Part shown: one piece after another, positions 38 through 25,020 of the stretch
Layout: every line of letters begins with the position of its first letter
Numbering within the stretch: position 1 is the first letter of the stretch
Origin: Tilletiaria anomala UBC 951
Lineage: Eukaryota > Basidiomycota > Exobasidiomycetes > Georgefischeriales > Tilletiariaceae
Direction: 5' to 3'
Assembly (NCBI RefSeq): GCF_000711695.1
Contig: NW_013546855.1
Coordinates: forward strand, 1-25,020
Length of the DNA stretch: 25,020 nucleotides
The notes under the pieces: model-generated
The model's input: the letters and a program-made list of their open reading frames with translations, nothing else
Databases searched by the model: none
What the model was told of the DNA's origin: nothing
Program-made: the position numbers and the translations under genes

Positions 38-732
38 GCCTTCTCGATGATTTGCGAGTGACGATCGGAAAGGACACTAGTTCTTCTCAGCCGTTGCGAG
101 AAATCGCGACTGTCGGTGCTAGGAACGGCGTGCTGTTCATTCACTGCTTTGACTCGTCTGTGCGTGCTGGGTGATGTGGCATGGCATGCGCGTTCGTTTC
201 CATCTGTTCCCTGGACTGACTCACCCCGGACCCGATCCTGGCTGTGGCTGCGGTGCTTCTCGTGCGCTTGCAGTACGTCAAGGATGTGGAGAAGGCGATC
301 TACGCTTCGCAGTTGAATCTTGCGCCGCAGGTCGTCTCTGGCGACGAGGAGGGGACGTTGCGGGTACCGGTGCCCAAGCCGACAGTGGAGACGCGCAAGG
401 AGCTCCTCAAGGACATTTCGCGCATCTGCGAGAGCGCGCGGGTTTCGATCCGCTCCGCGAGACACGCCGCGCAGAAGCAGATCAAGGCGGACATTGATGG
501 CAAGATCGTCGGCAGCAGCGAGGGCAAGGCGCTGATGAAGAAGGTGAGAGCGGGGAGTGCATCCCCACGCGCGGGAGTGCGCTTTGGCTGACTCGGTTCT
601 GGTGACTGTTGCGGATGCTGCCGCGTGCTACTTCCCTCGCAGATGGAAGACACGACGAAGAAGTTTTCGGCTGAGATTGATCAAGTCTTAGAGCTGAATA
701 AGAAGAAGATCGAAGCTAGTATCGAAGACTAA
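38..732 (+). CDS. RRF1: Ribosome recycling factor, mitochondrial type (5' exons outside the window)
   Basis: Ribosome recycling factor splits post-termination ribosomes; in fungi the RRF-fold protein acts in mitochondria. Three exons are visible: 38-159, 274-543 and 643-732 (stop TAA 730-732), separated by GT-AG introns 160-273 and 544-642. The first visible exon follows an AG at 36-37 in phase 2 and encodes LLDDLRVTIG, then PLREIATVGARNGVLFIHCF, a hallmark strand region of the family. The next exon gives YVKDVEKAIYASQLNLAPQV, then RVPVPKPTVETRKELLKDIS, the conserved 'P-P-T-ERR-EL' region. The last exon encodes the closing helix, ending KKKIEASIED. About 159 residues are seen; the start codon and any mitochondrial targeting peptide lie upstream of the window. 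Family identity is secure. The mitochondrial location is inferred from the family and is not visible here. Confidence 0.9.
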
Positions 733-944: not shown

Positions 945-1823
945 TCAGAGCTGAGCAGAGGCACCCCTGGCCTTCTCGAAGCGTGCCTCGGCCTCCTGCC
1001 AGTTGATGACGCTCCAGATGGCCTCGAGGTACTTGGGCCTAAGGTTCCTGTACTGGAGGTAGTACGCGTGCTCCCACACGTCAACGCCGAGGATGGGAGC
1101 GTGCGAGATGAGTGGGTCCTGGTCCTTGGTGGTAACCACCTCGAGTTTCTGACTCAGGGCGCTGTAACCAAGCCAGCCCCAGCCGGAACCCTGGACGGCG
1201 GCGGTGGTCTTGTTGAAGTGCTCCTTGAACTTTTCGACGCTGCCAAAGTCCTTCTCAATCGCACTCTTCAGCGCGCCGTCCTTGAGCTGGCCACCGCCGG
1301 CCTTGCTAGGGGCGAGGTTCTTCCAGAAGAGCGTGTGGTTGATGTGGCCGCCACCGTTGAACTTGATCGCGGACTGGATCTCGATCTGCTTGCGCACGTC
1401 CCGCGCCTGGACGGCTGCGGCGTACGCCTTCTCGGCGGCGTTCAGGTTGGTGACGTAGGTGTTGTGGTGCTTGCTGTGATGGACTGCAAAAATGGTTCAG
1501 GGTTAGCAAGTGCAGGGAAACTGTCAGGCGGCGGCAGCGGTGGAACTGGCGGGTCGTCGACTCACTCTCCATGATCTCGCCTGCGCAGCACAAGCGGCAG
1601 CAGTGTAGGTGTCGAGGGCACTCAGGAAGACTATCAGCGAATTTCTAAGCTTTACCTATCTGCAGCAGGTTCACTCACCAGAGATTGCTGGCTCGAGGTC
1701 GGCGTAGCCGTAGTCAAGCTTGGGGAGAACGTGCTCAGCTGGCAAGGGAGGCGGGTTAAACATGGTCAGGTCAGCATCGCGCCAGTTGCAGACGCCCCCC
1801 CCCTCGGGGCATGACTCACACAT
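945..1823 (-). CDS. SOD2: Manganese superoxide dismutase, probably cytosolic form
   Basis: The enzyme dismutates superoxide to O2 and H2O2. Four exons, read on the minus strand, are 1823-1820 (ATG plus one base), 1738-1679, 1580-1566 (15 nt) and 1483-945. They add to 618 nt, or 205 residues. Introns are 81, 98 and 82 nt. The N-terminus reads [18 protein letters not shown]. Metal-site motifs are present: [17 protein letters not shown] and [22 protein letters not shown] is followed by DQDPL, whose Gln is typical of the Mn enzyme. There is no Arg-rich presequence; the conserved fold begins within four residues of the Met, as in known cytosolic MnSODs. The 15-nt exon encodes the middle of the conserved GEIMEIHH segment and cannot be skipped without deleting it. 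Intron 1 is a multiple of three with no stop, so its retention would give a 27-residue longer N-terminus. A targeting peptide from an unseen upstream exon is possible but unsupported. Confidence 0.92.
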
Positions 1824-2978: not shown

Positions 2979-3659
2979 CTAAGGAAAGGCAGACTTTTTT
3001 GCCCATAGGGCCCAAAAGGCGGTGGCGGCATCAGCCATTGCAAACTCGGGGTCTCCGTCCCCGAGCGTCGGCACAGGCAGGACACTGTCTTCGGTCGCCG
3101 CGCTCGCACCAGCACCAGCAGCGAAGCAGAACCCGAGCTCCATCGTGAGGGAGTCTCCTGCGCAAGAGCGGGTAGAATCGCCCGGCCCGCGTCCATCCGC
3201 ACGGTTCGAATTTCCACTTACGACCTCTGTCGCTGCCGCTGTGTTTACGCAGCAGCAGCAGCAGGTACCGACACCCTTTGTCTCGCACGCCTGCAGCACA
3301 AGTTGCATCCGTATGGAAGTGCGCAGACCGTGGCGTCCTTAACTTTTTGGCTCCGCGCCGGGATCTCCACACCTGTTGCCGCCGTGCAGCTCTGGCGCAA
3401 GGTCGGCATCTGCAGCCGGATCGACGTCTCCGTCCAACGCACTCTATCGCAGATCGGTATCCCGCCGCTGCTTGCTGCTTGGAGGCCAGCATTCAGAGGC
3501 AGGTGTAGAAGCGACGTTGAAAGCAGGAGCGGTGGCAGGAGAGACTCCGGGACGCTGACCACGCTTTCCGGCCTCTTCAACTTCTCGTCATCATTGAGGG
3601 TAGCAGCAGCAGCAGGGAGAGAAGAGGGCGTAACAGCCTCGTTGACATTGGAGCGCATC
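2979..3659 (-). other. Ambiguous GC-rich stretch, possible short minus-strand spliced gene
   Basis: The minus strand holds coding-like text in pieces. A frame beginning MMRSNVNEAVTPSSLP starts at about 3662, overlapping the start codon of the plus-strand methyltransferase. Further pieces are ALDGDVDPAADADLAPEL (near 3440-3390) and a C-terminal-looking piece with GDGDPEFAMADAATAFWALW that ends in a stop at 2979. A good GTAAGT donor lies near 3216 with a GCGCAG acceptor about 50 nt on. The pieces do not join into one clean model, and two stops interrupt the best frame. The plus strand of the same stretch also has an open, Ala/Pro/Gln-rich frame. CAG/CTG runs occur near 3250-3264 and 3604-3620. 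I do not recognise any family. It may be leader sequence of the methyltransferase gene. Confidence 0.25.
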
Positions 3660-5317
3660 ATGCAGAAGGTCGAAGATTTCCACCTGGACCGGGGCGAGCA
3701 GGCCAAGGAGCAGGTGTATTTCAAGAGCATCCTTAGAGCGTTCGATGGCTACCTGCCTTTCTCGCTCTCGCAGAACAATGCCCGACGAAAGTCGTACTAC
3801 AGCCTGCCGAGAGCGCATCAGCAGCTGCTCACACATCTTGGGTCGCCCCTTCCCCTCCCGCAACTTGACGGTGGTGGAGGCGAGGAAGAAGCCGGCAACC
3901 GCGCTGACGGGGTGCCGGGCAGGCCAGAGGCATTCCAAGGCTTGCGTGGCGTGAAAGCGCGGCTGGAAGAGATCGACGACCGGATACGCCGGAACGCAGA
4001 TGTGCTGCATCTCATCGTGCAGGATGCACGTGACTTCATGGGCGATGAAGATGGAGACGCGTCATCGCCGGAGACAGATCATGATGGCAAGAATGGGGGT
4101 GTGGAAGAAGAGGAAAGGGAAGTGCAAATGCAAATGCAAGCGGAAGTAGAGAGCAGCGGGGTAGATGCAGACGAAGGCAGTGCGCGGCCACAGGCTGGGC
4201 ACGACATCACGCCACCCGATACGAATGCTGTCGCAGGGGACTCTAGGCTGCCGGGGTCGCCAACGAGCTCGGGCGCACATCTGCACTTGCGCACACATCC
4301 GAATACGCACGCAAACGGCCCGCCTCCGAAGTCGGTGTCGGGGGGCACGCGACGCAAGCGCAAGCGCATACCGGCACAGGACCTGGATAAGGTCCGCAGT
4401 ACGCTCAAGCAATTTGTCCGTGATTGGAGCGAATGCGGGCGCGCTGAGCGCGACGCGGCGTACCAGCCGATCCTCGATGCGCTCGAGCGGTACCTTCCGC
4501 AGCTTTACGCCCGGCTTCCGCAGGCAGGGCGTCCACTGGAGGACACACAGCAGCGGCAGGTGCACGCCGATTTGCGCGTCCTCGTCCCCGGCGCTGGTCT
4601 CGGTCGCCTGGCATTCGAGATCGCAAAGCGCGGCTTCTCATGCCAGGGCAACGAATTCAGCTTCTTCATGCTCGTCGCATCGCATTTCATCCTGAACAAC
4701 ACCAGCCGCGTCAACGAGCACACCCTCTACCCATACATCCATTCGGCGTCCAACTGGCGCACGGCGCGCGACATGCTTGCGCCTATCTACATCCCCGATG
4801 TCCTGCCCAACACGCTGCCGTCCCAGGTCGACTTTAGCATGGTGGCTGGTGAGGTGAGGACTCTCTCTGCGCGATTCGCTTCACTCTTGACGTCAAGGCT
4901 GCTGACCGTGTGCATGACGGCCGTCCGCTTGCATCCGTACAGTTCGTAGAGGTGTATTCAAAGAGCGAAGAGCGCGGCGCCTGGGACGCCGTCGCGACAT
5001 GCTACTTTATCGACACGGCGCGCAACATCATGCGATACCTTGAGACGCTCAACCATATCCTACCGCTTGGCGGCCTGTGGGTCAACGTCGGGCCTCTGCT
5101 GTGGCACTACGAAAACGGCGGCGACCTCAGCATCGAACTGACGCTCGAGGAGGTGCTGGGCCTCCTGCCCAAGATGGGGTTCGAGGTCGTCGAAAGGCGC
5201 AGCTTGCCGCCGCAGATGTACACGGGCAACGCAGCAGGTATGCTCACGTACGAGTACCATCCAGAATTCTGGATCGCCAGAAAGGTGATGAATGTCGAAC
5301 CGAGCGGCTCAGTGTAG
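3660..5317 (+). CDS. CARNMT1: Carnosine N-methyltransferase (N2227 family, UPF0586)
   Basis: This is a SAM-dependent methyltransferase of the family that converts carnosine to anserine in animals; the fungal homologue is yeast YNL092W, whose natural substrate is less clear. Two exons, 3660-4853 and 4943-5317, flank an 89-nt intron (phase 0) and encode 522 residues. The ATG at 3660 is the only in-frame Met before the conserved N-terminal helices (YFKSILRAFDGYLPFSLS). Residues of about 125-235 form a long acidic/Gln insert followed by the basic patch RRKRKR at about residue 228, a possible nuclear localisation signal. The SAM-binding loop is VLVPGAGLGRLAFE at about residue 305. The splice joins SMVAGE to FVEVYSK within the domain. 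CYFIDTARN and GPLLWHYENG match the catalytic-pocket segments; their Asp and His correspond, from memory, to substrate-binding residues of the human enzyme. The C-terminus ends EYHPEFWIARK plus a short tail. The frame is open back to 3303, so an upstream spliced leader cannot be excluded. Confidence 0.92.
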
Positions 5318-5354: not shown

Positions 5355-5841
5355 TCAATCTTGGCCGCCACTTTTTGCGACCTTCTGATGCGCCTGCAGT
5401 GCAGCAATGAATTTGCCCTTGTCCAGACTGTGACGCGCTATCTCTGCTTGGATCCAGGTGCAATCATTGAACAGGCGGATAATGAGTTCAAGTTGCACGC
5501 GAGCGTTGCAGTACCTCATGCTCACCCTCGCCATTCAAATGCAGAACCGGAATGTCATATTGGTAGAGCCGCCGCCACTTGTGCACGTCTGACAAAGAGT
5601 CGTCCCGGATGTTGAAGAGCTCCAATGTGAATGCAGGTGCTTCCTTGCGCGCAGAGTCAATGACCTCCTTCACGTCATCGCATAGTGAGCACTGGGGTCC
5701 CGTGTACAACCTCAGCTTGAGCACGCCGCTGGCCTCGAAGCTGCTCGTGCTGTAGGCGTAGGAAGCGCGATGGCGTGCGCCAGATCCAGATGCTCCATGC
5801 ATCGCTCGCATTAGGCCCGATGAGGCTCTTGGGAGTAACAT
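5355..5841 (-). CDS. Glutaredoxin-like protein with CSLC motif (DUF836/YDR286C type), likely mitochondrial
   Basis: A small thioredoxin-fold protein. The exons, minus strand, are 5841-5526 and 5443-5355, with an 82-nt intron (donor GTGAGC, phase 1), giving 134 residues. The fold begins VLKLRLYTGPQCSLCDDVKE, with the redox CxxC as CSLC, continues through FTLELFNIRDD, and has the cis-Pro strand YQYDIPVLHLNG; the second exon gives the last helix (DKGKFIAALQAHQK). The first 40 residues contain several Arg, many Ser/Ala and no acidic residue before FEASG, as expected of a mitochondrial targeting peptide. An in-frame ATG also exists at 6006, but the added stretch has poor codon use and is probably 5' leader. 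The gene converges on the methyltransferase gene, and the stop codons are 37 nt apart. The family is well recognised, but its biochemical role is poorly known. Confidence 0.85.
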
Positions 5842-6236
5842 CGTCACCGAAGTTCGATTGCGACCAGCCTCGCTGTCTGTACAGCCTGTGCGAATGAGCA
5901 CTGTGGTGTTAACACAGAAATGAAAGGTCCGTGCCCTAGCGAAAAGCTTCAGAGCGGTGAACTTGGAGTTGAAAGGCGTATCAGAAACATATAGTAATAG
6001 TCGCATGCCGGCATTAGGTGGTCAAATCTCGCGTCGTGGTGCCGAGTTACAGACCTGGTGGAGTGGCACAACTACATGGGAGATTGAGGTGGCTGATTGG
6101 TCTGGTACAAAAAATAACACATACACATAACCTTGTACACAAACGAGGATAGCAGTGTAGAACGAGAAACCAATGCGATTATTCGAAACAATGCGATGCG
6201 ATGGGAATAGAAAGCGAAAGCGAAATCTATTATCAA
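5842..6236. other. Intergenic stretch between glutaredoxin-like gene and decayed bZIP gene
   Basis: About 0.4 kb, noticeably richer in A+T than the surroundings (for example 6090-6240), with a repeated GAAAGC/AATGCGAT flavour near 6165-6230. It probably holds the glutaredoxin-like promoter and leader together with the old 3' region of the bZIP gene. No gene is supported. Confidence 0.5.
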
Positions 6237-12103: not shown

Positions 12104-14803
12104 ATGAGGTGAGTGCACAGTCCGGCGCCCAGCCCCCCCCAATATCTCCGTGCCTCGCCCGTCTGTCGTTCGACCCATTCCCAGCGGGCGTTCGGGGCAT
12201 CTTCAGAACGACTGTCAACATGCAGATCAGCTTGCAATACCTTCTTGCAGTAGGGCTGACACCACACTTCATGTTGTACTTACACAGCGTTCAGAGCAGC
12301 GTGCTGGGTTTCCCCCGCATCGGACCCCAGCGTGAGGTCAAGAAGGCTCTCGAGGCCTACTGGGCGGACAAGATTAGCGTCGACGAGCTACTCAAGATCG
12401 CCAAGGAGCAGCGTCTGCTCACCTACGAGACTATCAAGTCACAGGGTGTCGATTTCGTACCCACCGGCACGTTCTCCCTCTACGACCATGTCCTCGACTT
12501 CTCAGCCACGTTCAACGCGTTGCCCGAAGCACACGCCAACTCCGGTCTCTCCGCGCTCGACGCCTACTTTGCCGCCGCTCGCGGTCACCAGAAGAATGGC
12601 GTCGACTTGCCGGCGACGGAGATGAAGAAGTGGTTCGACAGCAATTACCACTACCTCGTCCCCGAGTTCAGCGAGAACACCCAGTTCAAGCTCAACAACA
12701 CCAAGCCCATTGATGACTTTGAGGAGGCCAAGGCTGCCGGCTACAACGCCCGCCCTGTCCTCCTCGGCCCCATCACTTACCTCTGGCTCGGCAAGGCCGG
12801 CAAGGGCGCAAGCGCCGGCTTCGATCAGTTCTCGCTCCTCTCCAAGCTCATCCCCGTCTACGTTGAGCTTCTCAACAAGCTCAGCCAAGCCGGTGCCGAG
12901 TGGATCCAGATTGACGAGCCCATTCTCGTGATGGACGCGGGCGCCAACTACGCCGAACAGTTCAAGCAGACCTACACCGAGTTCGCCAAGGCTGCCCCCA
13001 GTGTCAAGCTGATGCTCGCCACCTACTTTGGCCGCCTCGACGCTAACATCAACTTTGTCAAGGACCTCCCCATTGCCGGCCTCCACATCGACCTCGACCG
13101 CAACCCAGAGCAGCTGAACGAGATTATCAGCGCTGTCGCCGGCACCAAGATCGGTCTCTCCTTGGGTCTCGTCTCTGGCCGCAACATCTGGAAGACCGAC
13201 TTGGCTGCTGCCATCAAGACTGCACAGAGCGCCATCGCCAAGCTCGGTGCTGAGCGCATCGTCATCGCTACCAGCAGCTCGCTACAGCACTGTCCCATCA
13301 CCATCACCGCCGAGAAGAAGCTCAAGCCCGAGGTTCTTGACTGGTTTTCTTTCGCCACCGAGAAGTGCGCGGAGGTCGCCGTTCTCGCCAAGGCTCTCAC
13401 CAACGAGGCCTCGGTTGCCGACGCACTCGCCAAGAACGCCGCCAGCATCAAGGCTCGCCGCGACTTTGAGAAGAACTCGGACCCTGCCGTCCGCCAGCGC
13501 CTAGCCGCTGTCAAGCCCGAGGACCTCAACCGCAAGTCACCCTTCAACGTACGCAAGGAGGTTCAGCAGAAGGTGCTTGACCTTCCTCCATTCCCAACTA
13601 CCACCATCGGCTCTTTCCCGCAGACCAAGGAGATCCGTGTCCAGCGTGCCAAGTTCAACAAGGGCGAGATTGACCAGGCGACCTACGAGAAGTTCATTGA
13701 GGACGAGATCCGCGATGTCGTCAAGCGCCAGGAGGCGCTTGGCCTCGATGTGCTTGTTCACGGCGAGCCTGAGCGTAACGACATGAGCCAGTACTTCGGT
13801 GAGTGAGAGCCTCTGCTCCGCGGTATTATTACGCAGAACTCATGCTTACCGACTGCATATGCATTGTAGGTGAGCGTCTGTCGGGCATGGAGCACCCTGA
13901 CTCTGCCTGGGTGCAATCCTTCGGCTCGCGATATGTCCGCCCCCCCATCATTGTTGCCGATGTCTTCCGCCCGGAGCCGATGACTGTCCGCTGGTCGGCG
14001 TTCGCACAGAGTCTCACGAAGAAGACGATGAAGGGCATGCTTACTGGCCCAGTCACGATCCTCAACTGGTCGTTCCCACGCGTGGATGTCCCGCGCGAGC
14101 TCCAGTGCAAGCAAATCGCCCTGGCCCTGCGCGACGAGGTCATCGACCTTGAGAAGGCCGGCATCCGTGCTATCCAGGTCGACGAGCCAGCAATCCGCGA
14201 GGGTCTCCCGCTCCGCCAGAAGGAGTGGTCTGCCTACTTCCGCTGGGCTGTTGACTCATTCAAGCTCGCGACTTCCGCTGTCGACGACAACGTCAACATT
14301 GCGTCGCACTTCTGCTACTCGGACTTCCAGGAGGAGGCCACCATGCAGTCCATCATCGACCTTGACGCTGACTTCGTCTCGTGAGTAAATCTATGGTGCC
14401 CAGTTGGAGTCTTTTACTGATGACGGGCGCTCCATTTTCACCCACAGTATCGAGAACAGCAAGTCGGACGCGAAGCTGCTCAAGGCCTTCACCAATAAGA
14501 AGTACCCTGCAGACATTGGCCCCGGTGTCTTTGACATCCACTCTCCGCGTGTCCCGACCGCAGAGGAGATGGTCGCTCGCGTCCGTGAGATGACCAAGTA
14601 CCTTGGCCCCCACCAGATCTGGGTCAACCCTGGTATGTTCACCGCTTCGCTCCATTCCACTAAGACGTGATTTACTAACTGCGCTTCTACCTTCTTCACA
14701 CATAGACTGCGGTCTTAAGACGCGCACGTGGAACGAGACCACCGCCCAACTCGAAAACCTTGTTGCCGCTGCCAAGCAGGCGCGTCAAGAATTCTCTGCC
14801 TAA
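12104..14803 (+). CDS. MET6: Cobalamin-independent methionine synthase (5-methyltetrahydropteroyltriglutamate-homocysteine methyltransferase)
   Basis: This enzyme transfers a methyl group from methyl-tetrahydrofolate polyglutamate to homocysteine, the last step of methionine synthesis, in the cytosol. Exons: 12104-12108 (only ATGAG), 12288-13798, 13870-14380, 14448-14632 and 14706-14803. They total 2310 nt, or 769 residues, the usual family length. The N-terminus is MSVQSSVLGFPRIGPQREVK. The N-terminal domain spans about 1-400, then the linker, then the catalytic barrel starting PTTTIGSFPQTKEIR. Zinc-site segments are present: ASHFCYSDF, HGEPERNDM and NPDCGLKTR; the last Cys lies just after the final splice. 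IQVDEPAIREGLP, from the barrel, is also intact. Introns are 179, 71, 67 and 73 nt. Intron 1 begins right after the second base of codon 2; if it is retained, translation stops after Met-Arg. Codon use is strongly biased to C/G third positions, as expected for a highly expressed gene. Confidence 0.97.
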
Positions 14804-15185: not shown

Positions 15186-17428
15186 TCAGTTGCGTGGAGC
15201 GCAACTGAACGGGCGCCTACCGTTCTTGGACTCGCCTATAATAGACACGACTGAGGCGTATGTTCCCGCAACTAGTACCAGTGCGCCCTACGGAAAGAGG
15301 AAGCCAGTGGGGGTGGTATGCGCATATGCGGCCAACCGTTGCGTCAGTTGTTGACTCGGCTGTGGCCCTCTAATGCGCGCATGGATCACACAGCGACTCC
15401 AAGGGGGGGGACTCACGAGGAGGAAGACAAAGAGGTTGATGATGGTCGACACGATGTTGTGCCAGTTGTCGTTCCATTTGCCCTTGCGCAGAAGCAGCCA
15501 CCAGATCAACGCTGGGAAGATGAAGTTGAAGCTCGAGATGAACAGCGCGCTGGTCAACGACAGTAATGACGAGAACGTCGGGATGGCTTGTGCAACGAGG
15601 AATGCTAGTGGGAGCACAAGGCACGTTCAACAGACAGTCAGCAATTGGATGCCCATGCGCAGTATACTAATGTGAGATGCGCGGCAGAACGCACCGACGG
15701 CTACAAAGATTGCGTTAATGAGCAGCCACACGAGAATGCCCGTCTTGGTGGAGATCCAACGATGGCGCGTTTCGCCGAGTATGCGCTGATGGATGTAACG
15801 TGCGGGCTGGTTGACCAGAATGCTGCCGCTGATGAAGATGAGCGGCAGCGCAATGCCAAAAACGATGCGTGAGACGAGTGGCCCGGCGGAGAGCAGCGCC
15901 GGGGACTGGACGCCCGAGCCGACAAAAACATAGATGATCGAGCCGGTCAGCGTGTAGATCGTGACCTCCGTCAGGCCGATGGCCCAGACGGCTTTCATAT
16001 AGTCATTCGGTTGGCGCAGCTCTGCTTGCACAGTTGGTTGTCCCATGATGAAGGAATACTGGGTGACGAATGAGAGAACGTCAGCTCAGTGCGCTTGGTT
16101 GTAAAAGCCGCCCCGCGAAGTTGAACTCACAGCCTGGCAGTGTCAGGAAAAGCAAAGCAAGTATGCGGGAAATGTGTGACGTATCAGTTCAGCGGTGTAC
16201 AATAGTAATGCCCCAAAAGATAAGCAAATACCCACAAAGACAATATTGCTGACAGCAACAAAGGCTTGCACGAACGATGGCTTCTCCTGCGGAAAGGCGT
16301 GCCAGTCCACCGTGCTTCTTCCACCTGGCAGGTTAGTCGCTTGTATTCCCGTCGCGATCATGGTGATTACCACGGCTGCGATGAGTGAAATAAAGTCAAT
16401 CACGCCTAGGATGGCAAACTCTGTAAATGACGGCGGGAGCGCGAGCACAAACTGTATGACACGCGTTCAAGTGTGTCAGCACAGGAGGCAGATGCTTGAG
16501 GAGAGCGCGACCGCGCACTGGAACGAGCGCATCACTCACGAGCAGAATGGCGCTAACAACGCTCCAGACGATGCTGCACGTCGCGCCATTGGTGATGGAC
16601 GTGAATGCGATGGCGCCCGTGAGCGTGTGGCTTGCCGAGGCGAGTAGCTGGATCAACATGAACATGACTGTGAAGACCTCGCGCCCCCAGCGACCAAACA
16701 TGCGCTCGCCGAGGTCGACGTAGGACAGCACTTCTGTCGGAGAGTTGTTGCATGCCGCGCCGACGACGTGCGCCGTGTAGATGCTGCCGTCACAAAGAAA
16801 CAAGCCGCGGAGGTGTCGTCAGCCGCTGCGATACGTGCTACAACATTCGCTCTACGCACACGATGAGGCCTATACCAATGGTGAGAAGTACGCCTGGCAC
16901 TAATCCTACCGTCGCAAACGCGCTGTGCTCAGAAAAGAGAATGTCAATGCATGGATCGAAGGTGGAATACTGCGGTTGGCCTCCAACACAAACGCACGAT
17001 GGTAATGAAAGAGTCCCGAGCGCCTATGTTTGCAGCCAAGGGAGAGTATGCTCTGGTCAAATGCCAAGCCATGAAGGAGTGAGAAACAGGCGACTTACCA
17101 CCGCCTCTACAATCAAGCAAATGGCCAATCTCTGCCAGCTCAGTCGCTTGAACCGGTGTTCGCTTTTCGCTCGCATTCGTTCATATTTTTCTTGCTCCAG
17201 GGCTTCTACTGCTGTTCCAGCGCCCTTTTCGTTGCAGCTTCCGTGCACGGGGCCTGCCTTATGCGCCTGCAACTGCTTCTTCTCCGAGTCTTCTGGCGCT
17301 GACGCGACAGGGTCGTCGAGGTCCAGTGTCCGCTCATCCGCAGAGCAGCGGTTCGAAGACTGCCGGCAAGCATCTTGCGGACACTGGTCATCTGGTGAGC
17401 GCGAGCGCGAAGCGGAGATCAGGCCCAT
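15186..17428 (-). CDS. Amino-acid transporter A (AAAP family, MTR/neutral amino-acid permease type)
   Basis: An amino acid/proton symporter of the Aa_trans family, in the plasma or organelle membrane. Nine exons, minus strand: 17428-17099, 17023-16998 (26 nt), 16922-16860, 16783-16540, 16451-16236, 16133-16131 (3 nt), 16058-15695, 15604-15417 and 15287-15186. They total 1536 nt, or 511 residues. The N-terminal ~95 residues are hydrophilic. The first helix starts WQRLAICLIVEAV and continues ALGTLSLPSAFATVGLVPG. Family landmarks include HTLTGAIAFTSI, ILGVIDFISLIAAVVITM, WHAFPQEKP and YTLTGSIIYVFVG, then FGIALPLIFISGS. The C-terminus is RPFSCAPRN. The codon encoded by the 3-nt exon gives the Ala in IVF-A-YSF, matching VVFAYSF in the neighbouring paralogue. 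Removing it leaves the frame intact but one residue short. The ATG at 17428 is the first in-frame Met. By eye it is about two thirds identical to transporter B in the core. Substrate unknown. Confidence 0.88.
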
Positions 17429-18546: not shown

Positions 18547-20881
18547 TTAATGGAGGTTGCAGCTGAACGGCCGGTGGATCGTGCCGGTCGCGTACTGTTC
18601 CTTGATCTCGGTCACACTTGAATAAACACCGCAGACCAGAATGAAGATGCCCTGCAGAAAAATAAGCGGAAGCGGTTGAATATGCGTTCTCCTTTGGAAG
18701 TGAATGGTCATGTCTCAGTTCGTGCTCACCATAAGGAAGATGACCGCATTCACAGCGGCCAGCATAATGTTCTTCCAGCTGTCGCGCCAGGTGCCTTCTT
18801 TCATACCCGGGCAAAGGAACCACTGTTGTACAGCGAGTAAGCGAAGGACATGAACGGGCTTGTCAGCAGCCGAGAAGGACAAGCATTTCGAGGGGCCTGG
18901 CATACCATGAGAGCAGGCAAGTAGAAGGTAAAGCCGGATACGGCCAGCGAAGCCATTAGTCTAGAATAAAAGGGACAGTAAGAGTCAGCGGTGGCGGGAG
19001 AATGAAGCAAGGAAGAGTTTAGGTGCTCACCCAAGGAACTGCACGGGGGGAGAGGACGACGCCCGAGTAGTAGAATGTAAGAGAAGTCAGGAAGGGTAAT
19101 ACACAACAGGCCGCGGGGGGGGGGGCTCACGTTTTCGAAGAACGGCACAAGACTGGCGACGACCCATCCTATGTGACGAGGGAAAGGGAAGATGCGTTTT
19201 AGCCGTGCACTCATATTTCGAGAGCCCTATCGCCAAGCAAGGCGAGGGCACAACATACCGAAGATGACGATCACAGCATTCAGGCCGAGCCACGCGCCGA
19301 TGCCGAGCGGTGTTGAGATCCAACGGTGGCGCGTCTTGCCAAAGATTCGAACATGCATGTACCGGGCGGCACTCGTCGTGTTAATCGAGCCAGAGATGAA
19401 AACTTTCCAAGCGGAAAGAGGTGGAACGCGGTCAGAAATCGCGTACTTTTGATGATGGCCACTAGCGGAATGTACTCACTGACTGGGAGGGCAACTGTGT
19501 GCGATCACGGCGGACGGGAGGAGAAGAGGACGACTCAGTACGGCAGACCCAGCTGCTCCCGCGCAAGGGGCTTCTTGCCACTCACTGCCGAACGCGATCT
19601 TGCTAACTGTAGGGCCAGCTGAGAGGAGCGCGGGTGACTGGACACCCTGGCCAACAAAGACATAGATGATGGCCCCGGTGAGCGTGTAGAGTACGATCTC
19701 CGTGATACCGAGCGCCCAGACGGACTTGATGTAGTCGTTAGGCTTCTTGAGCTCCGCCTGGAATGAAGGCTGGCAGATGGCAAACGAGTAGGCGAACACG
19801 ACGTTCGTGATTGCGACGAAGGCCTTTGCGAACGTCGGCCTCTCCTCCGGGAATGCGTGCCAGTTGACAGCGCTCAGTCCGCCCGGCGCATTCGACGCCT
19901 GAATCCCCGTTGCGACTATCGTCAAGAGGATCGCAGCGCAGATCGACACAAAGTCGATGTACCCCAGGATCGCAATATCCGCGAACGAAGGCGGTAGTGC
20001 GACGAGGAACTGGCCGTGTGCAGCGGGTCCGCGTCAGTCTCAATCGTCTCGCTTTGCTCGAAATGGAAGACGCACCAGAATGATGGACGACACGACGGTG
20101 AATACGATGGAGCAGACGGCACTGTTAGAGAGGTTGTTGAACGCGATGGCGCCAGTGAGCGCATGCGAGCCAGTGACGAGTCCGAGGTACACGAAGAAAC
20201 ACCCTCCGATAACCTCCCGTCCGACCCGGCCAAACATCAGCTCGCCGAGGTCGTGGAAGTGCTCAATAGGTATCGGTGAGCGGTTGCACGCCCGGCCGAC
20301 CAGGTACGACGTGTAGATCGCGATGAGGCCAATACCGATGCAGGTCAGTGCACCAGGGACCAGGCCGAGTGTTGCGAATACTCTGCAAGCGGGAGTGACA
20401 CGAGCAAGCCTGATGTGAGTCGGTATTCCGTATGGTACAGAAGCGAGGAGAAAAGAAACTCACCCAGGTAAGGACAGTGCACCTAAGGCCTACATTGTGG
20501 GCGATCAGGAAAATCCTTGCATTCAACACGTTGCACTTCCTCAGGATTCAGCCTGCCTTGGCTCTGCGCACTCACGATGGCCTCAACGATCAAGCATACT
20601 GTCAGACGCACCCAACCGAGCTGCTTGAACTTGGCCTTGGTCTTTTCGCTGATCCCCTGGGATGCATCGTAGTCATCCGCCTGCACGACGACCGGGCCTT
20701 TCTCAGCGCCGTCGACGAGGCTTGCGCTACCGACGGCATCCTTTTTCTTTCCCACGTCGGTGCTGGCGCCGCCGAGTACGCCTGCTGTCTCTCCGGACGA
20801 AGCAATGGACGACGAGTCTGCCGCTGGCGTCGCGGCAGCAGCTGGCTCGACCGAGCGTCGGTGAATCGAGTCGGACGACAT
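18547..20881 (-). CDS. Amino-acid transporter B (AAAP family, MTR type), paralogue of A
   Basis: Eleven exons, minus strand: 20881-20576, 20489-20464 (26 nt), 20382-20076, 20009-19586, 19494-19480 (15 nt), 19402-19259, 19168-19131, 19038-19031 (8 nt), 18960-18906, 18822-18730 and 18651-18547. The sum is 1521 nt, or 506 residues, in frame throughout. The N-terminal ~85 residues are Ala/Ser/Asp-rich and hydrophilic. Helix 1 is WVRLTVCLIVEAI, then ALGALSLPG-VFATLGLVPG. Landmarks: SHALTGAIAFNNL, ILGYIDFVSICAAILLTI, WHAFPEERP and YTLTGAIIYVFVG, then FGIALPVIFISGSI. The 15-nt exon supplies ALPV; the 8-nt exon supplies FLG in FFEN-FLG-LMAS. The intron at 19479-19403 ends in AAG rather than YAG. The C-terminus, HRPFSCNLH, resembles RPFSCAPRN of A. 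Shared intron sites and the C-terminus show that A and B arose by tandem duplication. Substrate unknown. Confidence 0.88.
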
Positions 20882-22897: not shown

Positions 22898-24607
22898 TTA
22901 TGGATGCTCATGTATCCAGCCACCGCGGCCGGTAGCGCCGGTCGGGAGCCTTCCACCACTCCCAGCACCACCGCCAAGCCGTTCTTGGATTGGCGAAGCA
23001 GCGGGCCAGGCGCCCGCTTGCATCGCATGCGGGCTCTTCTCTGGCGGAGACGTCGACGCCGATGTCGCTGTGCTCACGTTGCCGCTATAACCCGGTCCGC
23101 TCGGCTGCTGTTGATATGGACGAGCGCTCACATTGTTTGGAAAGAACGATGTTGCTCTTGGCGGCTGCTGTTGCTGTTGCTTGTATGGTCGGCCGGGTGC
23201 AGCTCGCGCCGAGCTATTGTGTGCCTTGCCGTCCTTAGCCCTATCATCGACATCATCGACACTGCTGAATTCGCTGTCCTCGCTCCACATTCCGCTCCTT
23301 GCGCTAAGCTTCACGTCGAAAGCCGCCTCCTGATCGTCTTCCACGTCGCGTGCGAACACGTCGTCGTCGTCCAAAAACCCTCCATTTTCGGCGCGGGATC
23401 GCCTCCGCACCGAGGCTAGCTCGCGTATGGCTTGAGAGATGACGCTCTTGCCGCGGCCACTTGAGCGTCGCCGATGCTTCTGCTTCTGCTGCTGACTGCC
23501 ATTGCCACTGTTCGCACCGACCGCACGGCCTTTCTCACCACGCGCGGGGACGTCACTGGGCTCCACGCGCGTGCCCCTTTCGTTAATTTTCATCCCTTTC
23601 GCGCCTCGCTCGTCGTCATCATCCCCTCTGCCGAGGCTGCTCAAAGTCTGTTTTTCCACCGCGCTGCTATCATTGAAAACAAAGCTGCCGAGCAGGAGCA
23701 CGACACCCGCGCCTGTGCCGAGCGTGATCCCGATCGTCACTGCGGCTCCCAGGAAGAGGTAGAGTGGGTAGAGCTCCTTTCCTACCACGATGAACGCAGC
23801 GAGCGGGAGCTCCAGCATGATGTAATAGAGACCGAGCAGTAGATACGCGACAGGCGCGAGCAGCAGCAGGCGGACCGGCTTGAGACTGTGCAGGACGCAC
23901 GACTTGGTGAACGCGTATACTGACGACGCCGCCGAAGTCGTCACACGCCCGACTAGGCTGAACACGGGGAAAAGGATGGATAGGAGCACCGAAGAGGTGC
24001 TGCGGAGGCTGACGAGTGCATAGCTTCCAAGCAGAATCACGAGCCATGCCGTGCCGCTGAACAGGTTGATTAGTGCTGAGCGCTCCGAGTCTGAGTCTGA
24101 GCGAGTTCGGGTGCGTGAGCGTGACTGTCGTCGTGGCAAGTTATCGTCGTGGTCGGCGGAATAGTCCTCGTTGTTGTATTCATCGCCTTTGTCATTATAA
24201 GTCTCTCGCCGGCTCTGTTGCTTCGGCGAGCGCCCTTTATTCGAGGGTCGCTCTTGCGCTGCTCTGCGAGGAGTTGCTGCTTTGGTACTACCCTTGTTTT
24301 TGGATGCTGCAACTTTGGCTGTATCGGCAATCTGGTCTGGAACGTGTTGCTGATCCGTGTTATGGGGCTGCTGCTTTTGGTGGATCGCATGGAAATGCGT
24401 GTCGCCAAAGAGAAAGCGCTCCTGAGCTGCCAGCCGCTCCTTGTCCGTAATCTCGTGCATCGAGCGGCGGACTGGCTGCTCAGCACGAGTCGGCGGCAGC
24501 AGGGCGGCGCCAAGCGCGAGTAGAAGAAGAACCAGGTGGAGAGAATGGGTAGGCCTTCGGCGTGCTCGAAGCGCCACGTGCGGGCCGCGAGATGGGGACG
24601 ACAGCAT
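22898..24607 (-). CDS. Membrane protein of unknown function with signal peptide and disordered tails
   Basis: A single exon of 569 residues; the ATG at 24607 is chosen because it starts a clear signal peptide (Arg-rich n-region, LHLVLLLLALGAALLPP at about 24-39, likely cleavage after TRA). Residues 45-175 are very hydrophilic, with RS/RT and acidic patches. Hydrophobic segments lie at about 180-200 (LINLFSGTAWLVILLGSYAL), 207-222, 245-275 (RLLLLAPVAYLLLGLYYIML) and 280-310 (YPLYLFLGAAVTIGITLGTG). Residues 312-569 are disordered: DDDDE, KHRRRSSGRGK (possible phosphorylation patch), a Q5 run and Ser/Pro/Gly. The run of hairpin-like hydrophobic segments with a PLYLFLG-x-A element weakly recalls fungal Ldb16, the seipin partner at lipid-droplet contact sites. 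That is a suggestion from memory, and an N-terminal signal peptide would be unusual for it. Codon use and the length of the open frame make it a real gene. Confidence 0.8.
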   Translation of the reverse strand: MLSSPSRGPHVALRARRRPTHSLHLVLLLLALGAALLPPTRAEQPVRRSMHEITDKERLAAQERFLFGDTHFHAIHQKQQPHNTDQQHVPDQIADTAKVAASKNKGSTKAATPRRAAQERPSNKGRSPKQQSRRETYNDKGDEYNNEDYSADHDDNLPRRQSRSRTRTRSDSDSERSALINLFSGTAWLVILLGSYALVSLRSTSSVLLSILFPVFSLVGRVTTSAASSVYAFTKSCVLHSLKPVRLLLLAPVAYLLLGLYYIMLELPLAAFIVVGKELYPLYLFLGAAVTIGITLGTGAGVVLLLGSFVFNDSSAVEKQTLSSLGRGDDDDERGAKGMKINERGTRVEPSDVPARGEKGRAVGANSGNGSQQQKQKHRRRSSGRGKSVISQAIRELASVRRRSRAENGGFLDDDDVFARDVEDDQEAAFDVKLSARSGMWSEDSEFSSVDDVDDRAKDGKAHNSSARAAPGRPYKQQQQQPPRATSFFPNNVSARPYQQQPSGPGYSGNVSTATSASTSPPEKSPHAMQAGAWPAASPIQERLGGGAGSGGRLPTGATGRGGWIHEHP

Positions 24608-25020
24608 CCTTGCCGTTGCTCGTATCACTTATCGCGACGCACAGGGTATCAACACCTGCGTCGTCGTGGTTTTGGACGCTGTCGCCGCCGCAACCGGACA
24701 AGTGCGTGTTCCACAGCAGGATGAAGGCGTACCGTATTGATCTTCTCTCTTCAAGCATCTGCCCAACGACAGTTACTTGGAACCTGGGTACACTGCACAT
24801 AGTCGTCATCCACGACCACAACCCAGCAAGCTGACAAAATTATTGGGTATCGTCTGGTCCTCTCCAAGTCCCCCCCCCGCGCAACATGCCGCGCACGGTA
24901 CTACGAGCGACTGAGCATTTGCACCGATCGAGCCTCGTGTGAAAGCGCAATCTGAATATGCTACTTGTGTAATCATGGCACAGATTCCAGCTCGCGTGCA
25001 ATTCCATTTCCGCGCCATCC
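24608..25020. other. Upstream region of the membrane-protein gene
   Basis: About 0.4 kb to the window edge. It holds a run of nine or more C near 24870-24879. No gene is supported on either strand; the minus-strand frame at 24806-25018 has no motif. Confidence 0.5.

What the first reader, a model, noticed from the sequence alone, without database searches (positions are those of the whole stretch)
16131..16133. A single-codon (3-nt) exon in transporter A
Minus strand: a CTGAC branch-like site and CCAG acceptor end an intron (16235-16134, 102 nt). GCT follows at once, then a perfect GTGAGT donor opens a second intron (16130-16059, 72 nt, ending CACCCAG). The GCT supplies Ala in IVF-A-YSF, exactly the residue in the intron-free VVFAYSF of the tandem paralogue. 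Exons this small are almost never annotated and are near the physical limit for exon definition.
Basis: partly seen in the sequence, partly recalled or inferred. Interest (0 to 1): 0.88.

Follow-up and report, generated by a model that had tools for sequence, protein, structure and literature searches.

The report
Single-codon exon in fungal transporter gene
In an intron-rich gene that looks fungal and encodes a probable amino-acid transporter, one alanine codon appears to stand alone between two introns, forming a 3-letter exon of the kind that gene-finding programs tend to miss.

Summary
In an Aa_trans (PF01490) gene on the minus strand (17428-15186, 9 exons, 511 aa), GCT at 16133-16131 lies between a 102-nt and a 72-nt GT-AG intron. 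It supplies the Ala of VF-A-YSF, which the tandem paralogue (53% identical) carries without introns there. The alternative, one 177-nt intron, exceeds all 16 other modelled introns (66-129 nt) and drops the residue. The flanking halves match Pfam positions 2-204 and 206-407, leaving exactly one open. Of 43 in-frame splice models, only this one gives VF-x-YSF, and it scores best. Shuffles gave an equally good 3-nt exon in 1 of 20,000, an Ala one in none. Splicing is probably sequential, by intron definition (inferred). No RNA, genome or orthologue was available. Ultra-small exons are known (1 nt in Fusarium and Arabidopsis, 3 nt in Drosophila, 6 nt in a basidiomycete); my searches showed no fungal 3-nt exon. 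Verdict: very probably a real constitutive microexon, a new member of a known kind.

The parts
16131..16133 (-). 3-nt exon (GCT, Ala294, phase 0 on both sides)
16134..16235 (-). intron 5, 102 nt, GTGGGT...CTGCCAG; no AG before its acceptor; CTGAT 50 nt and CTGAC 9 nt from the 3' end
16059..16130 (-). intron 6, 72 nt, GTGAGT...CACCCAG; CTGAC 22 nt from the 3' end
16236..16451 (-). exon 5, ends ...VSNIVF
15695..16058 (-). exon 7, begins YSFIMG...
15186..17428 (-). transporter gene A, 9 exons, 511 aa, Pfam PF01490 Aa_trans (model)
18547..20881 (-). tandem paralogue B, 11 exons, 506 aa, PF01490 (model); VVFAYSF lies in one exon (20009-19586)
19480..19494 (-). 15-nt exon of paralogue B (inferred)
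19031..19038 (-). 8-nt exon of paralogue B (inferred; not a multiple of 3, so its skipping would shift the frame)

Best explanation
GCT 16133-16131 is a constitutive 3-nt exon of a 9-exon gene for a PF01490 (AAAP) transporter. Two ordinary short GT-AG introns flank one Ala codon. They are removed one after the other by intron definition, because the acceptor of the first and the donor of the second are too close to be occupied at once. The 3-nt exon holds all three exonic donor positions (-3 to -1), so the second donor reads the same whether or not the first intron has gone, and either order of removal leaves good sites. The mature mRNA then encodes VF-A-YSF in a hydrophobic segment that is probably TM6. 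Shown: the sequence, frame, splice motifs, paralogue match and profile gap. Inferred: actual splicing, sequential order, constitutive use and TM6.
For: Paralogue alignment: 266 of 502 aligned residues identical overall and 33 of 51 around the site, with the Ala shared. Pfam: 181.3 bits with Ala and 169.5 without; the halves end at profile 204 and begin at 206. The two introns, 102 and 72 nt, lie within the 66-129 nt range of the 16 others, while 177 nt does not. It scores highest of 43 in-frame models: 20.2 bits over four sites, against 11.1 over two sites for the best one-intron model. Only 4 of the 43 keep the 511-aa length, and the other three score -2.1 or less. Chance is 1 of 20,000 shuffles, 0 with an Ala codon. 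Its donors (5.4, 7.4) and acceptors (1.8, 5.6) lie within the leave-one-out range of the other 16 introns; 3 of 16 donors are weaker than 5.4 and 3 of 16 acceptors weaker than 1.8. Retaining the whole stretch gives 2 in-frame stops. Paralogue B has inferred 15-nt and 8-nt exons.
Against: There is no RNA evidence. Donor GTGGGT is not seen in the 16 other introns and the 16134 acceptor is moderate. Skipping is in frame, so frame alone does not demand the exon. I drew both gene models with the paralogue in view and trained the score matrices on them, so these lines are partly circular. No orthologue was found, in collections that hold few or no fungal genomes. One of the two other AG-NNN-GT sites of equal score in the window is antisense to a coding gene, so such sites do arise by chance.
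Confidence: 0.9

Rival explanations
1. One 177-nt intron (16235-16059) is removed and the protein lacks the Ala (VF-YSF); the GCT between splice-like motifs is accidental.
For: The product is in frame and open (510 aa); the same outer donor and acceptor are needed in the favoured model too.
Against: 177 nt is longer than all 16 other modelled introns. It deletes a residue that the paralogue has and for which the Pfam profile has a position. A chance 3-nt Ala exon this good came up in 0 of 20,000 shuffles.
Confidence: 0.05
2. Both forms are made: the microexon is a cassette and the transporter exists with and without Ala294. (Overlaps with the best explanation, which shares the claim that the exon is real.)
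For: Both forms are in frame. The outer donor and outer acceptor together score 11.1 bits.
Against: Nothing here shows regulated skipping. The residue is shared with the paralogue and has a profile position.
Confidence: 0.1
3. The exon in the 177 nt is larger or lies elsewhere (other acceptor or donor pairs).
For: Other in-frame combinations exist, for example a 17-nt exon (6.2 bits) or a 9-nt exon (4.6 bits).
Against: No two-intron model without the GCT exon scores above 6.2 bits, against 20.2. None of them gives IVF-x-YSF, and the best two give proteins of 517 and 513 aa, longer where the paralogue aligns without a gap. No AG lies upstream of 16134 in intron 5.
Confidence: 0.02

Closest known systems
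1-nt exon of CYP621A P450 genes, Fusarium (PMC12940212; parts 1-2 of 3 of the text read)
   Same: A fungal ultra-small internal exon inside a conserved motif, between two short introns, inferred from an intronless relative and missed by annotation.
   Different: 1 nt, not a whole codon; in an ascomycete P450; needed for frame; supported by RNA reads and by 20 orthologues. Here it is 3 nt, frame-neutral, without RNA.
1-nt exons of Arabidopsis APC11 (PMC4674806; abstract and passages) and plant VPS55 (PMC8831610; passages)
   Same: Exon far below the size thought to suit exon definition, with copies lacking the flanking introns in some relatives; one-after-another intron removal is proposed.
   Different: Plant genes; 1 nt; experimentally confirmed.
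3-bp exon of Drosophila homothorax (PMC7392893; abstract and section list)
   Same: Exon of the same size, one codon long.
   Different: Alternatively spliced as the first 3 nt of a 48-bp exon; animal gene.
Microexons of Phanerochaete chrysosporium P450 genes (PMC1184071; passages)
   Same: Intron-rich fungal gene family with many tiny exons.
   Different: Shortest exon given there is 6 bp.
Stwintrons (nested spliceosomal introns) in fungi (search listing with starts of abstracts)
   Same: Two short introns next to each other, removed consecutively.
   Different: In a stwintron one intron interrupts a splice element of the other; here a codon lies between two complete introns.

Membership tests
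spliceosomal microexon (exon of 30 nt or less) | internal exon of 30 nt or less flanked by GT-AG introns | tested here: met
   3 nt in the model, both introns GT-AG, 102 and 72 nt
spliceosomal microexon (exon of 30 nt or less) | coding contribution conserved in relatives | tested here: met
   Ala in the paralogue and one open position in PF01490; only one paralogue was available and the residue preferred at that profile position was not seen
spliceosomal microexon (exon of 30 nt or less) | included in mature mRNA | not testable with these tools
   no transcript data
AAAP / Aa_trans transporter | match to PF01490 above the gathering score | tested here: met
   181.3 bits against a cut-off of 25.6, profile 2-407 of 410
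AAAP / Aa_trans transporter | transport of amino acids | not testable with these tools
   no assay
stwintron | one intron interrupts a splice element of the other | tested here: not met
   a complete codon lies between two complete introns
recursive splice site (zero-nt exon) | AG directly followed by GT | tested here: not met
   the sequence is AG-GCT-GT

The most novel reading that the evidence does not exclude
The single-codon exon is a switch. Skipping and inclusion are both in frame, so the organism could make two transporters that differ by one residue in a probable substrate-lining helix, without nonsense-mediated decay. The 3-nt length would leave the downstream donor equally strong in either splicing order.
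Probability: 0.1. Interest if true: 0.72.

Novelty: new member of a known kind. Interest (0 to 1): 0.5.

Why it matters
It adds a single-codon exon, apparently fungal, between the reported 1-nt and 6-nt fungal exons, in a gene pair where the partner serves as a ready control. Exons this small are easily lost by gene finders and read aligners; here the loss would silently delete one residue of a membrane transporter. The pair also bears on how microexons arise. Six of the eight introns private to one paralogue come as close pairs (3, 15 and 8 nt apart), as expected if cDNA-mediated loss removes neighbours together or if new introns tend to land beside existing ones.

Tried and rejected
Relatives: two scans of genome contigs and two of viral contigs confirmed none. 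These collections are prokaryotic or viral, so the blank says little. PDB by sequence gave only chance-level hits (best E 0.25 and 0.049, cytochrome oxidase subunit 2). No whole genome is held for the window. A structure of the paralogue's 141-aa exon, folded alone, came out at mean pLDDT 51.7; it puts the Ala (residue 73 there) inside a helix (57-79) but is too weak to use.

Introns 5 and 6 show no clear kinship to each other or to the other introns: their best local scores were reached by 130 of 200 and 33 of 200 shuffles. U1-duplex energies did not separate used from unused donors (the unused GTATTT at 16231 gave -5.4, like several modelled donors), so I give them no weight; the U1 sequence was recalled.

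A chance reading was rejected on the shuffles and the paralogue. Stwintron and recursive-site readings were rejected because a codon lies between complete introns. A literature hit for '3-bp exon' in Ganoderma gpd (PMC8379801, passages) refers to part of a longer exon. My first idea that intron 5 alone lacks an internal AG did not survive a recount (see the report).

Full report
OBSERVATION. The minus strand reads ...AATATTGTCTTT|GTGGGT...CTGCCAG|GCT|GTGAGT...CACCCAG|TATTCCTTC... at the stated coordinates. I drew gene models by eye for the gene and its tandem neighbour and checked them in a script. Gene A runs 17428-15186 with 9 exons and 511 aa; gene B runs 20881-18547 with 11 exons and 506 aa. 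All 18 introns modelled are GT-AG. The two proteins align over 502 residue pairs with 266 identities and both match PF01490 Aa_trans (181.3 and 174.9 bits). Around the site 33 of 51 residues are identical, and the Ala is shared. In B the motif VVFAYSF lies inside a 424-nt exon.

IS THE CODON NEEDED? Without splicing the stretch has 2 in-frame stops, so something is removed. If the whole 177 nt is one intron, the protein reads VF-YSF, and Pfam scores 169.5 bits instead of 181.3. Scanned apart, the upstream half matches profile positions 2-204 and the downstream half 206-407: one position is open, the size of one codon. I take the loss of 11.8 bits to be roughly the price of any one-residue gap (not tested), so the number is weak; the gap of exactly one position is the point. 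The 16 other introns are 66-129 nt long. The proposed two are 102 and 72; a single one would be 177.

SPLICE SITES. A matrix was trained on the 16 other introns. Donor 16130 scores 7.4 (2.8% of 1402 minus-strand GTs as good) and donor 16235 scores 5.4 (6.3%). Acceptor 16059 scores 5.6 (6.2% of 1576 AGs) and acceptor 16134 scores 1.8 (30%). By leave-one-out scores, 3 of 16 other donors are weaker than 5.4 and 3 of 16 other acceptors weaker than 1.8. GTGGGT does not occur among the 16. I enumerated the in-frame models between 16262 and 16030 with GT or GC donors, introns of at least 45 nt and a middle exon of at most 60 nt. Four of the 43 keep the length of 511 aa.

CHANCE. In 20,000 dinucleotide shuffles of the stretch, 1 held any 3-nt exon with both sites as good and none an Ala codon; with the summed score as criterion, 22 and 0. 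In the real window, 3 of 199 AG-NNN-GT sites reach both scores, all on the minus strand: this one, the last 3 nt of B's 15-nt exon, and one antisense to MET6. Of the 16 other introns, 3 hold an AG-NNN-GT of any score at least 20 nt from their ends.

MECHANISM (inferred). The introns are short, so each should be recognised across the intron. The acceptor at 16134 and the donor at 16130 are 3 nt apart and are unlikely both to be bound by full complexes, so removal should be sequential. This is what the APC11 authors propose for their 1-nt exon; they cite potato invertase, where the intron after a 9-nt exon goes first (PMC4674806, passages). The three nucleotides are exactly the exonic part of a donor site, so the donor at 16130 is the same before and after intron 5 is removed; the acceptor at 16134 likewise keeps its following G. 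Either order leaves good sites. Intron 6, with the stronger donor and acceptor and a CTGAC 22 nt from its end, may well go first. Looser YTNAY motifs do occur at 6-12 nt in some introns.

INTERNAL AG. Intron 5 has no AG at all before its acceptor. AG-free 100-nt stretches make up 126 of 24,920 on this strand and 329 of 24,920 on the other. This is not unique, however: leaving the donor hexamer aside, two other introns of the 18 have no internal AG. These are the two that flank B's 8-nt exon (19130, 19030). All three AG-free introns thus lie beside the 3-nt or the 8-nt exon. With the 3-, 8- and 15-nt exons counted, 6 of 18 introns are flanking and chance would put all three there in 20 of 816 draws; with the 26-nt exons of A and B counted too, in 120 of 816 (my arithmetic). 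It was seen after looking and is only suggestive, but it would fit tiny exons that need unambiguous acceptors.

WHERE IN THE PROTEIN. The Ala is residue 294, inside the hydrophobic stretch 281-299. By order of segments this is probably TM6, which in the APC/LeuT-like fold lines the substrate site (recalled, not tested). The structure prediction was too weak to use.

ORIGIN. Five intron positions are shared by A and B; three are private to A and five to B. Of these eight, six form close pairs: 3 nt apart in A, 15 and 8 nt apart in B. If private introns were placed at random, at least one such pair in A and two in B would occur in 0.063% of trials. If instead an ancestor had all 13 positions, three or more pairs within 15 nt would occur in 19% of trials. 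Each pair would then have to be lost together: three of three on the same side has odds of 1 in 8 under independent loss, and needs no luck if a cDNA tract removes neighbours at once. The second account fits with less strain, so the microexon may be old and lost in B. Without outgroups this stays open. Introns 5 and 6 show no clear sequence kinship to other introns.

KNOWN WORK. A 1-nt exon is reported for Fusarium CYP621A genes as the first for a fungal gene, with RNA reads (PMC12940212, parts 1-2 of 3 read). Arabidopsis APC11 has one too; its paper gives 6 nt as the smallest constitutive and 3 nt as the smallest alternative exon known until then (PMC4674806). Plant VPS55 has another (PMC8831610, passages). 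A 3-bp exon is alternatively spliced in Drosophila homothorax (PMC7392893, abstract). Phanerochaete P450 genes have exons down to 6 bp (PMC1184071, passages). A 20-nt switch microexon is described in Trichoderma virens (PMC11121469, passages). The listings showed me no fungal 3-nt exon. I opened only some of the papers listed, one search showed 15 of 3,963 and was uninformative, and the library lacks most subscription papers, so absence from print is not established.

LIMITS. That it is a fungus, probably a basidiomycete, is my inference from the short introns, the gene types and general knowledge, not a test.

Noticed in passing
19494-19480 and 19038-19031 (minus): Paralogue B has inferred 15-nt (ALPV) and 8-nt (FLG) exons where gene A has no introns; the 8-nt exon is required for the reading frame.
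   Followed up: partly
17023-16998 and 20489-20464 (minus): Both paralogues share a 26-nt second exon at the same place and phase.
   Followed up: no
genes A 17428-15186 and B 20881-18547: Six of the eight introns private to one paralogue come as close pairs (3, 15 and 8 nt apart), while five positions are shared.
   Followed up: partly
16235-16134, 19130-19039, 19030-18961: The only three of 18 modelled introns without an AG between donor hexamer and acceptor all lie beside the 3-nt or the 8-nt exon.
   Followed up: partly
19482-19480: The last 3 nt of B's 15-nt exon are themselves preceded by CCCAG and followed by GTGAGT, so an alternative 3-nt exon is possible there.
   Followed up: no
12109-13806 and onward (plus): Cobalamin-independent methionine synthase gene; the open frame ends at profile position 496 of 754 (TIGR01371), so the gene seems to go on behind introns.
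   Followed up: no
244-591 (+), 945-1397 (-), 3303-4949 (+), 5488-6006 (-): Neighbouring open frames match ribosome recycling factor, Fe/Mn superoxide dismutase, carnosine N-methyltransferase and glutaredoxin-like DUF836.
   Followed up: no
22898-24628 (-): A 576-codon open frame with no Pfam or NCBIfam match at E 0.001.
   Followed up: no
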